Shown here piece after piece: positions 4,723-8,225 of a stretch of 64,000 bases of DNA. Source of the DNA: Tolypothrix brevis GSE-NOS-MK-07-07A (lineage in GTDB: Bacteria > Cyanobacteriota > Cyanobacteriia > Cyanobacteriales > Nostocaceae); NCBI GenBank assembly GCA_019358985.1, contig JAHHIJ010000003.1:124001-188000 (forward strand), read 5' to 3'. How positions within the stretch are numbered: position 1 is the stretch's first letter; each line of letters opens with the position of its first letter. Below the pieces are notes generated by a model, which worked only from the letters and a program-made list of their open reading frames with translations, searched no databases and was not told where the DNA came from. The translations under genes and the position numbers were made by a program.

Positions 4723-4922
4723 TTATATCTGGTTCGGAATGGCGAATGTAGAATGGGGATAATTACCAATACAGAATAGATTGTAATGTGCATTTTTTAG
4801 GAAATATTTGGTTACACCACAAATATATAAACTATTATTAAGTTTGGCGAAAAGCGTGAATTTGCTGCTTTGAGTAAATTTATCAAAGCAGTTGACGGTG
4901 ATGAAATTATGAGACTGGGGAA

Positions 4923-7900
4923 ATGATTCAAGTTGGTTCATTGGTGCGATCGCGCAATAACAATCTGGGAATAGGCAAAGTTACTCAAATATCCGAGCAA
5001 TCGGTAATTGTAGAATATTTTTGCTCCTTGGGAAAGCAAATTCAAAATACGTTACCTTTAGCTTCGCTGTCTCAAGTGAGAATACAGCGTCAAACTCGCT
5101 GTTATATCAAATTAGAAAATGAAGACAGATGGGGAATCGGTAGAATTTTCACTTGGGATGAAGACAACGATTTATATCAAGTTGATTTACCAGATAAAAA
5201 GACGGTTTTAGTAACTGAACAAGATGTTTACGTGCGTTGTGATTTGCCAATTGAAGACCCAATTGATATTTTAGCAATGAAGGGTCAAGAAACGCCCTAC
5301 TTCCACGAAAGACGACTTGCTTTAGTTAATTGTTTGATGTCCCAACGCTCTGTCAGTCGGGGGATGACAGGCTTACTTTCTGCTAACATTAAGTTTTATC
5401 CCCACCAAGTTGAAGTTATCCGCAGAGTCCTAGAAGACCCAATTCAACGCTACTTATTAGCAGATGATGAAGGGTTGGGAAAAACCATTGAAGCAGGTGC
5501 TATTCTTCGCCAATATTTGTTAGATGAACCCCAGGGAAAAGCTTTAGTAGTAGTACCGCAATATTTACTAGAACAATGGCATCAAGAGTTAGAAAATAAA
5601 TTTTATATCTCTCATTTTCCTGATAGAGTGAAAGTGGTAGCGGTGGAAGATGTGCAGAAAATTAACCGCAACGCAGATATAAATTTTTTAATTTTAGATC
5701 AAGCTGAAAAAATTGCTGCAATGGCGTACTCATTTGACGCTTCACAACGCCAGAGTTTTGCGGTTTACAAACACATAGCTCATAAATGCGATCGCCTACT
5801 TTTACTTACTGGTACTCCACTATTAAACCACGAGCGGGATTATCTGGCGATGCTACATCTGTTAGATCCTGACATCTATCGGATGGATGATTTAAAAGCC
5901 TTTCGTGCTAAAGTGCAAAACCGCGTCGCAATTGGTAAAATTTTACTTTCCTTGGAAGATGCAGATTCTGTTGTTTTGAAAGACAACTTAAATCAACTCC
6001 GAAAGCTTTTTCCCAAAGATACTTATTTACTTGATTTAGCACACCAGCTAGAAAATTTCCAAACAGCTACCGACCAAGATAAAATCATTAGAGCAATTCG
6101 CACTCACATCAGCGACACGCATCGACTTCATAGACGAATCCTTCGCAATCGTCTTGCTTCGGTAGAAGATGTAATTTTTGAGAGAAATATTACACCCAAA
6201 GCCGAGTATGATTTAGATGAGCGTTCAATAGATATTCACGAATCAATTCAAAAGTGGCGTAGCGTTGCTCCTAATGAAAAAGAGTATCAGCGCATATTTC
6301 TGCTTTTATTTCTAGGTTCTGGAACATGGTTGGGTCTTTTAGAACAGATTATCACCGCACGCTTAAAGAACGTAGCTGGCAAAGAGTTAATTCAAGACTT
6401 TGATGAGGAAAGCATTTCCATGCTTACCGATACTCCGAAATTTGCTGATGAAGAAGAGATTTTAGAGCATTTGCTGAAAATTGTTCGACAACCATCAGAA
6501 GATGGCGATCGCATCGAACTACTCAAAACAGTATTACTCTACCACCTCAGCGAACCCTTTAATTTACAATCTTATCGGTCAAATCTCAGCAAATTACTCG
6601 AACAAGTACAGCGACGGATTATAAGACCAATACCGGGTGATATACTACCAAAAATTGTTGTATTTACCAGCTTTGCACTAGTTGGAGCCGAAATCGTTCG
6701 TTGTTTGAGAAGCAGTTTTGGTAAAGCAACTGTCGCTACTCATCAAGTCGGACAAACTCACGCTGAAGTTGAAAAGAATCTTAAACAATTCAAAAACGAT
6801 CCAAAGTGTTTTATTCTTGTTTGTGATTCTAGTGGCGAAGAAGGTCGTAGTTTACAATTTGCCGACTGGATGATTCATTTTGACATTCCTTGGTCGCCAA
6901 ATAGCCTGGAAAAAAGAATCAGTAGGATAGACAGCATCTACACTACACAGAAAAGTGAGTTAACAGTATTTGCAGGTGCAGATTTAGAAGATAGTCCGCA
7001 CGATGCTTGGTATCGTTTGTTAAAAGAAGCTTTAACAATCTTTAGGCAATCAATTACCAATTTTCAGTTTTCTCTAGATAAAAAATTGCCGCAACTCGAA
7101 GCAAAGCTGTTTGAAACGGGAGCAAATGGACTAATAGAAAGTATAGAACAAATCCAACATGAAATAGCTGCCGAAAAAATCAAACTGAGCCAGCAAAATG
7201 TTTTAGACGAGATTGATATTCTTGACGAAGATGCTACCCAGTATTTTCTAGCATTAGATAATTATGATGCTAAATATCAAGAAATACAGCGATGTGTAGA
7301 AGGATGGATTTGTGATGCTTTAGAATTTAAGCAAGTTTATAAAACCGATTTCACTGGAATACAGCGCTACCAACCAACAATGCGTACCTTGCTTCCAGTA
7401 GATGAATTGAGAACTTACTTCAACACTTTTGCAGAGACATTTGGTACTTTTAACCGCCAATTAGCAAATCAAAATTCTGATATCAATCTCTATAGAATTG
7501 GTGAAGAATTTCTGGAATCATTAGCATCCTATATTCACTGGGATGATAGAGGTCAAGCTTTTGCACTATGGCGATTTGATAAATCTTGGGATAAGAGTCC
7601 AGGTAAGGAATGGTTTGGTTTTAGATTCAATTATATAATTGAAGCCAATTTAACTTACCTTAAAGAAGACACCAAATATCAAATTCTCAAGCGTCGCGCT
7701 GATGGCTTATTTACCCCAATAGTCGAGTCGATTTTCGTTGATGCAGTTGAGCCTATGTCTATAGTGCAAAATGAAGAATTATTAACTATTTTGCAGCGTC
7801 CTTATAGGGGTAAAGGTGGCATTCAATATCGTGATTATAATTTAGCGAAAACTCGATTATCAATAATTGATAACTTTGTTGAAGCTAATAAATGGCAAGA

Positions 7901-8225
7901 CTTTTGTTATCAAGCGCGTCAAACTTCTTTGGAATTACTCCAGCAGCGTCCTGATTTTCGGGAATTGTGCGAAAAACAGGCGAAAATTGCTGAAGATAAA
8001 TTAAATAAGCACGTTGAACAATTACAACTGCGGCTTAATCAACTTGTTGAAAACAAAGAAAGGTCAAATTCTGAGCTAGGAGAAGAAATTGAAACAGAAA
8101 CTGATTTAATACAACTAATTATAGAAGGAATTCGCCATCCTTCTATTCGCCTTGATTCTGTTGGTTTTATTGTCGTTTCTGGATATCCTCCCACTCAATC
8201 TGATGAAGAAGGCGATATTTTTTAA
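4923..8225 (+). CDS. SNF2/RapA-type helicase resembling DpdE, solitary
   Basis: This is an 1100-residue superfamily 2 ATPase. Residues 1-105 form tandem beta-rich modules (GSLVRSRNNNLGIGKV, then a second at RWGIGRIFTWDED). The helicase core has motif I DDEGLGKTIEAG (181-192), a degenerate motif II LDQAE (258-262) instead of DEAH, motif III LLTGTP (294-299), and motifs V/VI near 636-670 (GEEGRSLQFADW, then KRISRIDSI). A long C-terminal region of about 430 residues has no motif I recognise. The overall plan fits DpdE, a helicase of the dpd cluster that installs 7-deazaguanine in DNA and restricts foreign DNA. No dpdA, dpdB, dpdC or other partner lies nearby. The DpdE name is by resemblance and from memory. 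A RapA-like helicase of another branch is the alternative. Confidence 0.7.
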   Translation: MIQVGSLVRSRNNNLGIGKVTQISEQSVIVEYFCSLGKQIQNTLPLASLSQVRIQRQTRCYIKLENEDRWGIGRIFTWDEDNDLYQVDLPDKKTVLVTEQDVYVRCDLPIEDPIDILAMKGQETPYFHERRLALVNCLMSQRSVSRGMTGLLSANIKFYPHQVEVIRRVLEDPIQRYLLADDEGLGKTIEAGAILRQYLLDEPQGKALVVVPQYLLEQWHQELENKFYISHFPDRVKVVAVEDVQKINRNADINFLILDQAEKIAAMAYSFDASQRQSFAVYKHIAHKCDRLLLLTGTPLLNHERDYLAMLHLLDPDIYRMDDLKAFRAKVQNRVAIGKILLSLEDADSVVLKDNLNQLRKLFPKDTYLLDLAHQLENFQTATDQDKIIRAIRTHISDTHRLHRRILRNRLASVEDVIFERNITPKAEYDLDERSIDIHESIQKWRSVAPNEKEYQRIFLLLFLGSGTWLGLLEQIITARLKNVAGKELIQDFDEESISMLTDTPKFADEEEILEHLLKIVRQPSEDGDRIELLKTVLLYHLSEPFNLQSYRSNLSKLLEQVQRRIIRPIPGDILPKIVVFTSFALVGAEIVRCLRSSFGKATVATHQVGQTHAEVEKNLKQFKNDPKCFILVCDSSGEEGRSLQFADWMIHFDIPWSPNSLEKRISRIDSIYTTQKSELTVFAGADLEDSPHDAWYRLLKEALTIFRQSITNFQFSLDKKLPQLEAKLFETGANGLIESIEQIQHEIAAEKIKLSQQNVLDEIDILDEDATQYFLALDNYDAKYQEIQRCVEGWICDALEFKQVYKTDFTGIQRYQPTMRTLLPVDELRTYFNTFAETFGTFNRQLANQNSDINLYRIGEEFLESLASYIHWDDRGQAFALWRFDKSWDKSPGKEWFGFRFNYIIEANLTYLKEDTKYQILKRRADGLFTPIVESIFVDAVEPMSIVQNEELLTILQRPYRGKGGIQYRDYNLAKTRLSIIDNFVEANKWQDFCYQARQTSLELLQQRPDFRELCEKQAKIAEDKLNKHVEQLQLRLNQLVENKERSNSELGEEIETETDLIQLIIEGIRHPSIRLDSVGFIVVSGYPPTQSDEEGDIF

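What the first reader, a model, noticed from the sequence alone, without database searches (positions are those of the whole stretch)
4923..8225. Solitary DpdE-like helicase with altered ATPase motifs
The protein has the two N-terminal modules, helicase core and long C-terminus I associate with DpdE of DNA 7-deazaguanine (dpd) clusters, yet no other dpd gene lies within 8 kb downstream or 5 kb upstream. Motif II reads LDQAE instead of DEAH and motif VI reads RISRIDSI instead of the usual arginine-finger sequence. It may have a role independent of base modification, such as a single-gene defence protein or a nucleoprotein remodeller without strong ATPase activity.
Basis: partly seen in the sequence, partly recalled or inferred. 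Interest (0 to 1): 0.65.

Follow-up and report, generated by a model that had tools for sequence, protein, structure and literature searches.

The report
Stand-alone DpdE with damaged motor
A cyanobacterial gene that databases name as one part of a DNA-modification defence system stands here without the rest of that system; it is kept intact by selection in many relatives, and in this genus its ATP-burning motor looks disabled while the rest of the protein is preserved, which points to a different, unknown job.

Summary
Window 4923-8225 (+) encodes an intact 1100-residue DpdE (NF041062: 1003.8 bits, cut-off 500). No DpdA, DpdF, DpdH or DpdJ was found in the whole genome. LDQAE and RISRIDSI read as reported. 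All five held genomes of the genus carry a DpdE with the same changes in motifs I, V and VI, including loss of the arginine matching RapA R599; the Walker-B glutamine is in two of five. Walker A (GLGKT) is kept.

Solo DpdE is common. In the family, 112 of 217 genomes have DpdE over the cut-off; DpdF and DpdH occur in the same 20. Solo copies are full length (0 of 74 under 1000 residues, against 7 of 30 in clusters) and under purifying selection. Most (51 of 80 complete non-cluster copies) keep canonical motifs. Only in the window clade is erosion clearly focused on the ATPase: RecA2, the most constrained region elsewhere, is the least, while non-motor regions match cluster DpdEs.

Best reading: a Dpd-independent RapA-type protein that, in this genus, binds ATP but hydrolyses it poorly or not at all, acting as a nucleoprotein-binding factor. 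Its partner (RNA polymerase, phage DNA, other) is unproven.

The parts
4923..8225 (+). solo dpdE, 1100 aa, complete reading frame
   Evidence: complete orthologues in the four other held genomes of the genus
4923..5216 (+). residues 1-98: two N-terminal beta modules in RapA-like position; in this genus the region with the lowest omega
   Evidence: block pLDDT 67-87; RapA model NF003426 matches residues 12-229; omega of residues 1-140 is 0.153, RecA1 0.166
5457..5498 (+). motif I LADDEGLGKTIEAG (residues 179-192): Walker A GLGKT kept, EV changed to DE
   Evidence: E182 and V183 in 23 of 23 complete cluster DpdEs; D182 and E183 in 5 of 5 of the window clade
5688..5714 (+). motif II LILDQAEKI (residues 256-264): E260Q, the position of RapA E281
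   Evidence: E in 23 of 23 cluster DpdEs; Q in window, L008 and L067
5799..5825 (+). motif III LLLTGTPLL (residues 293-301), SAT changed to TGT
6825..6860 (+). motif V DSSGEEGRSLQF (residues 635-646), N643S
   Evidence: N in 23 of 23 cluster DpdEs, S in 5 of 5 of the window clade
6906..6941 (+). motif VI LEKRISRIDSIY (residues 662-673): Q664K, G667S, R671S (position of RapA R599), G673Y
   Evidence: PMC8501970 (passages) names K183, E281 and R599 of RapA as conserved active-site residues
7083..8222 (+). residues 721-1100: region in the place of the RapA spacer and C-terminal domain, conserved at about the same level as among cluster DpdEs
   Evidence: spacer part matches RapA significantly, the C-terminal match is colinear but not significant
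4823..4922 (+). 100 bp upstream conserved in all five genomes although the flanking genes differ; likely start or regulatory region
4867..4889 (.). inverted repeat GCTTTGA-N9-TCAAAGC, arms kept in 5 of 5
   Evidence: read; function not tested

Best explanation
The gene encodes a stand-alone DpdE: a RapA-architecture Swi2/Snf2 protein that has become separate from the Dpd defence system and is maintained as a single gene with its own conserved upstream region. Shown from sequence: none of the Dpd partners searched for, intact frame, purifying selection, presence in all held genomes of the genus. Inferred: in this genus it can still bind ATP (GLGKT and the Walker-B aspartate are kept) but hydrolyses it poorly or not at all, because one motif VI arginine and neighbouring motif V/VI residues are replaced in all five genomes, and the motif II glutamate in this one and one other; the N-terminal, spacer and C-terminal regions, which in RapA flank the motor, still bind the partner. 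It would act as an ATP-switched or ATP-independent clamp on a nucleoprotein complex. Weakest step: the partner. By architecture I put RNA polymerase first (about 0.3), phage or plasmid DNA second (about 0.2), unknown for the rest.
For: DpdE by sequence; DpdA, F, H, J not found genome-wide. DpdE in 5 of 5 genomes of the genus; DpdH, DpdA and DpdF in 0 of 5. Shared motif losses, preferentially at motif columns (p = 0.0007). Omega of RecA2 relative to the rest: window clade 1.94 (bootstrap 1.37-2.86), cluster DpdEs 0.67 (0.46-0.97), canonical solos 0.56 (0.38-0.78). Identity of the window clade to cluster DpdEs is within about two points of the identity among clusters outside the motor (N 58.5 vs 57.7, middle 56.8 vs 55.7, spacer 54.4 vs 56.4, C 54.3 vs 54.8) and about five points lower in RecA1 (65.4 vs 70.5) and RecA2 (58.8 vs 63.8). 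Whole-protein omega about 0.20. Copies under 1000 residues: solo 0 of 74, cluster 7 of 30 (p = 1e-4). RapA is the best solved relative by profile and by fold.
Against: No biochemistry. Motif changes do not prove loss of hydrolysis; three of five members keep the motif II glutamate. One of the five genomes (G314) is only 54% complete, so absence of dpd genes there is weak. Three of the 93 family genomes with DpdE but no DpdF/DpdH do have a DpdA over the cut-off on another contig (G395, G410, G430), so not every solo DpdE is free of all dpd genes. The structure model is weak (mean pLDDT 59.8; residues 699-897 nearly all under 50) and TM-scores to RapA are only 0.39/0.43. RNA-polymerase binding is inference from architecture. 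Paired tree contrasts do not show that becoming solo leads to motif change (11 contrasts, about 2 agree, 0 oppose, p 0.25-0.5). In the three other altered clades, motif losses are not enriched over other conserved columns. The bootstrap uses overlapping pairs from only five genomes.
Confidence: 0.5

Rival explanations
1. Single-gene defence: solo DpdE senses foreign DNA by itself and blocks phage or plasmid.
For: DpdE belongs to a defence system; among the defence-only models of PADLOC, HmaA, DrmD and BrxH are its next-best matches. In genus g125 solo dpdE sits beside a BREX-like gene set (NERD-kinase, PglZ-like, BrxL). One of ten annotated downstream proteins is SocA-antitoxin-like.
Against: Present in all 53 genomes of genus g7 that I can identify and all 5 of g1, wider than I would expect of a patchy defence gene; stronger purifying selection in canonical solos (0.105, ten pairs) than in clusters (0.196, six pairs); of ten downstream proteins from nine solo loci, eight match ordinary families, one is antitoxin-like and one has no match; no nuclease domain matched.
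Confidence: 0.2
2. Still an active ATPase with unusual motifs, doing what canonical solos do.
For: GLGKT and D259 kept; three of five members keep the motif II glutamate; RecA1 omega is still low (0.166).
Against: R671S, Q664K, G667S and N643S fixed in 5 of 5; RecA2 constraint relaxed.
Confidence: 0.15
3. Decaying relic of a lost dpd cluster.
For: On a tree rooted on an Enterobacter cluster copy, solo and cluster states change about 12 times, so solo copies may be what remains after cluster loss.
Against: No solo copy of 74 under 1000 residues; omega 0.19-0.24 in this clade; constraint is not uniform but low in the N-terminus and RecA1.
Confidence: 0.08
4. Antagonist of incoming Dpd systems: a spare or motor-dead subunit that poisons a Dpd complex and protects resident DNA or plasmids.
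For: One solo copy lies on a plasmid directly behind its replication gene; motor-dead subunits can be dominant negative (established knowledge).
Against: Seven genomes carry a solo copy and a cluster together (G109, G179, G269, G280, G334, G358, G364); most solos have intact motors.
Confidence: 0.07

Closest known systems
DpdE of Dpd clusters (NF041062; e.g. Nostoc sp. C057 plasmid p057_I, Enterobacter cloacae pPOL9A)
   Same: Full-length homology over profile 1-1048; 64% identity to the C057 copy
   Different: No dpdF-K neighbours, no DpdA/F/H/J found in the genome, altered motifs I, II, III, V and VI
RapA (RNA polymerase recycling Swi2/Snf2 ATPase)
   Same: Best solved relative by profile and fold; same order of N-terminal beta modules, RecA1, RecA2 and spacer
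   Different: 148.5 bits against a cut-off of 576; lacks two of the three active-site residues named for RapA (E281, R599)
Other solo DpdEs: genus g7 (canonical motifs); T. variabilis plasmid A and Nostoc NIES-3756 plasmid (altered motifs)
   Same: Single gene with no dpd neighbour in the stretch examined
   Different: g7 copies keep all ATPase motifs; the plasmid copies have other substitutions
BREX BrxHII and DISARM DrmD Swi2/Snf2 helicases
   Same: BrxHII has a RapA-like architecture (PMC12839542, passages); DrmD models match the helicase core
   Different: DrmD 124.9 bits against 610. Whether this genome has BREX or DISARM genes was not searched

Membership tests
DpdE protein family (NF041062) | full-length score over the curated cut-off of 500 bits | tested here: met
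   1003.8 bits, profile 1-1048
DpdE protein family (NF041062) | canonical Swi2/Snf2 motifs as in cluster copies | tested here: not met
   9 of 24 RapA-defined motif residues differ; complete cluster copies with two or more differences: 1 of 23
Dpd defence system | restriction genes dpdD, dpdF-K beside dpdE or in the genome | tested here: not met
   D and F-K in the window; F, H and J genome-wide; D, G, I, K not searched genome-wide
Dpd defence system | dpdA transglycosylase for the DNA base | tested here: not met
Dpd defence system | 7-deazaguanine in DNA | not testable with these tools
   needs LC-MS
RapA | score over the RapA equivalog cut-off | tested here: not met
   148.5 of 576 bits
RapA | RapA domain order | tested here: inconclusive
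   colinear profile match over RecA1, RecA2 and spacer, C-terminus not significant; RapA entries are the top Foldseek hits, but the model is weak
RapA | binds RNA polymerase | not testable with these tools
   needs pull-down or structure
DISARM DrmD | score over the cut-off | tested here: not met
   124.9 of 610

The most novel reading that the evidence does not exclude
DpdE has repeatedly become separate from an antiphage system and turned into a stand-alone chromosomal protein, present in every identifiable genome of at least two genera of this cyanobacterial family, and in one genus it has become a motor-dead, ATP-binding nucleoprotein clamp (a pseudo-translocase), perhaps serving RNA polymerase; in the window's own genome the DpdE profile finds no second RapA-like protein.
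Probability: 0.35. Interest if true: 0.8.

Novelty: new variant of a known kind. Interest (0 to 1): 0.62.

Why it matters
Genome annotation names these proteins DpdE and so suggests a DNA-modification defence system that is not there: in this family 93 of 112 genomes with DpdE lack DpdF and DpdH. The case offers natural variants of one fold with an intact and with an apparently disabled motor, both under selection. That makes it possible to ask what the non-motor parts of DpdE and RapA-type proteins do, and how a defence component becomes a resident cellular protein. Solo copies should not be counted as Dpd systems by defence finders.

Tried and rejected
RapA or another SNF2 family as the true identity: rejected on scores. 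A dpd cluster elsewhere in the genome: not found for A, F, H, J. A shared partner gene of solo copies: none across lineages; the neighbours found are lineage-specific. A coupled upstream small ORF: a 30-codon open tail overlaps the start in the window clade but no matching tail was seen in other lineages (the two longest frames per locus were looked at). BREX partnership: seen only in g125. Phage carriage: 7 phage records with partial SNF2 matches, none covering 80%; of 207 viral-contig relatives the best 80 were kept, and two of these (L197, L198) encode a full-length DpdE-like protein, both beside dpdF. Outside cyanobacteria three further plasmid relatives were opened: Agrobacterium vitis and Paenibacillus copies lie in dpd clusters, the Shinella record has no annotation. 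Promoter- and terminator-like sites around the gene are no more frequent than in shuffles.

Circularity: the 12 residues were picked as invariant in clusters, so '0 altered clusters' there is by construction; one search repeats the count with a RapA-defined set. Of the about seven origins of altered motifs, two carry only T298N (L152 and L170; L160), so five have more than one change. Direction of change in g125 is undecided: dpdF-D may have been gained or lost beside a resident dpdE.

Papers: PMC11888242, PMC12839542, PMC12458937, PMC12707154, PMC8501970 and PMC7306931 were seen as passages only; other papers only as search listings. The four primary Dpd papers asked for by id are not held and were not read. 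That a solo, motor-altered DpdE is not in print rests on searches in an open-access library only.
Full report
What is there. Window 4923-8225 (+) is an unbroken 1100-codon frame. It scores 1003.8 bits against NCBIfam DpdE (cut-off 500) along the whole profile and 720.1 bits against a PADLOC DpdE model; RapA, DrmD and ZorD models are far below their cut-offs. It is DpdE by sequence.

Is it solitary. The genome (6.52 Mb, 74 contigs, 99.75% complete) has one DpdE over the cut-off, no DpdA, no DpdH, and only background helicases for DpdF and DpdJ. Within the window, tblastn with the dpd proteins of a Nostoc and an Enterobacter plasmid finds only dpdE. DpdB, C, D, G, I and K were not searched genome-wide.

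How common is a solo DpdE. In the same 217 genomes of the family, DpdE is over the cut-off in 112, DpdH in 20, DpdF at E <= 1e-110 in the same 20, 18 of them over the cut-off, and DpdA over the cut-off in 16. Nineteen of the 20 DpdF/DpdH genomes also have DpdE (G398 does not), so 93 of 112 DpdE genomes lack both. At these thresholds DpdF and DpdH always occur together, so of these three only DpdE is found alone. Three of the 93 (G395, G410, G430) do carry a DpdA over the cut-off on another contig. In genus g1 (the window's) 5 of 5 held genomes have DpdE and none has DpdA, F or H; one of them, G314, is only 54% complete. In genus g7, all 53 genomes that can be identified in the listing have DpdE and two (G358, G364) have DpdH; 85 genomes without a match are not listed by name, but handles G337-G387 run unbroken through g7 and all are hits (G342 only as a partial copy at a contig edge). 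In the order sample 27 of 243 genomes have DpdE over the cut-off.

Classification. I sorted 110 DpdE loci (111 loci examined, one, L191, without DpdE; five duplicates, L174-L177 and L187, dropped beforehand; from g7 27 loci). Seventy-four are solo, 30 lie beside dpdF, G, H or J, and 6 are undecided because the contig ends. Frames under 1000 residues: 0 of 74 solo, 7 of 30 cluster (Fisher p = 1e-4; 3e-4 without L068, which lies on a short contig). Solo copies are therefore in better repair than cluster copies.

Motifs. Among 103 complete copies (74 solo, 6 undecided, 23 cluster) the cluster copies are uniform: EVGLGKT, D259, E260, T298, P299, S637-G638-E639, N643, E663-Q664-R665, G667, R668 and R671 are each 23 of 23. 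Against 24 residues defined from RapA (alignment), 1 of 23 cluster copies has two or more departures (the distant Enterobacter one, L013; two others have one each), and 26 of 80 solo or undecided copies do. On a tree built without the motif columns, altered motifs need about 7 changes (two of them T298N only) and the solo/cluster label about 12; a careful tree of 35 rows needed 6, at least 5 forced by well-supported branches. All altered copies are solo or undecided, but paired contrasts on the tree cannot show that one leads to the other (11 pairs, about 2 agree, 0 oppose, p 0.25-0.5). The quick tree joins some long branches, so the place of L067 is unsure.

The window clade. Window, L006, L007, L008 and L009 share E182D, V183E, N643S, Q664K, G667S, R671S and G673Y; E260Q is in window and L008. 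By the alignment, E260 and R671 match RapA E281 and R599 (chain numbering minus 6), which PMC8501970 (passages) lists with K183 as the conserved active-site residues; the lysine is kept. At 232 columns invariant in 22 cyanobacterial cluster copies, this clade has fixed changes at 8 of 38 motif columns and 7 of 194 others (p = 0.0007); five of those seven (400, 406, 411, 704, 712) lie in the lobes of the motor as I bounded them. The three other altered clades do not show this focus (p 0.3-0.66), L067 and L059 are borderline (0.051, 0.043), so motor-specific erosion is claimed only for the window clade.

Selection. Whole-protein dN/dS (Nei-Gojobori), summed over pairs: cluster 0.196 (6 pairs), canonical solo 0.105 (10), window clade 0.201 (8), other altered solo 0.158 (7). 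RecA2 alone: 0.125, 0.062, 0.285, 0.176. RecA2 relative to the rest, with codon bootstrap: 0.67 (0.46-0.97), 0.56 (0.38-0.78) and 1.94 (1.37-2.86) for cluster, canonical solo and window clade; 1.15 (0.74-1.65) for g13. The pairs overlap and were picked by me, so these are effect sizes rather than formal tests. Identity of the window clade to cluster copies is within about two points of that among clusters for the N-terminal, middle, spacer and C-terminal parts, and about five points lower in RecA1 and RecA2.

Context. Solo copies have no common partner gene; several lineages have their own conserved neighbourhood. In the window genus the glutaminase gene lies upstream in four of five loci, while 100 bp directly upstream of dpdE are conserved in all five, with an inverted repeat at 4867-4889. 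In g125, G297 (cluster) and G302 (solo) share the flanks and dpdE at about 95%; a block of about 14 kb with dpdF to a truncated dpdD in one occupies the place of an 11-kb block in the other, which is shared with the solo genome G299 and holds a BREX-like set. Gain and loss cannot be told apart. Of ten downstream proteins from nine other solo loci, eight match ordinary families, one is SocA-antitoxin-like and one has no match.

Architecture. A profile of 16 DpdEs matches RapA best among solved structures, over RecA1 and over RecA2 plus spacer; a third, C-terminal stretch is colinear but not significant. The predicted model shows two N-terminal beta modules and the RecA lobes but is poor from about residue 700 to 900 (mean pLDDT 59.8); Foldseek ranks RapA entries first (E 3.4e-29, TM 0.39/0.43).

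Mechanism. Shown: identity, absence of the partners searched for, conservation, motif replacement, shift of constraint. Inferred from established SF2 knowledge: Glu-to-Gln in motif II and loss of a motif VI arginine typically allow ATP binding but block hydrolysis. Inferred from architecture: a nucleoprotein partner, RNA polymerase first. The rival readings and their tests are listed separately.

Known or new. The family and fold are known. A stand-alone DpdE present throughout cyanobacterial genera, and a clade with a selectively eroded motor, were not found in the papers I could search (searches; open-access library only; the primary Dpd papers are not held). PMC11888242 (passages) surveyed dpd islands with dpdAB as required anchor, which by design would not see a solo dpdE.

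Noticed in passing
L010:1703-9417 (Nostoc sp. C057 plasmid p057_I): A second, inverted and broken copy of parts of dpdF, G, H and J lies about 11 kb upstream of dpdE (stops inside the dpdH pieces).
   Followed up: no
L193:1025-11744 (G302, genus g125): A BREX-like set next to solo dpdE: two small unknown proteins, an 1801-aa protein without Pfam match, a NERD-kinase, a PglZ-like protein and BrxL.
   Followed up: partly
L011:16670-23306 (T. variabilis plasmid A): Solo dpdE with altered motifs lies directly behind the CyRepA1 plasmid replication gene.
   Followed up: no
L053:11755-13710: A 651-aa ORF directly behind a canonical solo dpdE has no Pfam match; by eye (recalled, no call) it looks reverse-transcriptase-like.
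   Followed up: no
family sample: Of 20 genomes with DpdF and DpdH only 7 also have DpdA over the cut-off, and 9 of 16 DpdA genomes lack DpdF and DpdH, so many dpd restriction clusters here seem to lack dpdA.
   Followed up: no
window 4867-4889: Inverted repeat GCTTTGA-N9-TCAAAGC 33 bp before the start, arms kept in 5 of 5; a 30-codon open tail also overlaps the start codon in at least 4 of these 5 loci.
   Followed up: partly
L069:8914-11280 (G179, genus g13): dpdE and dpdF of a cluster appear fused in one 788-aa frame (dpdE 1-271 followed by dpdF 275-846).
   Followed up: no
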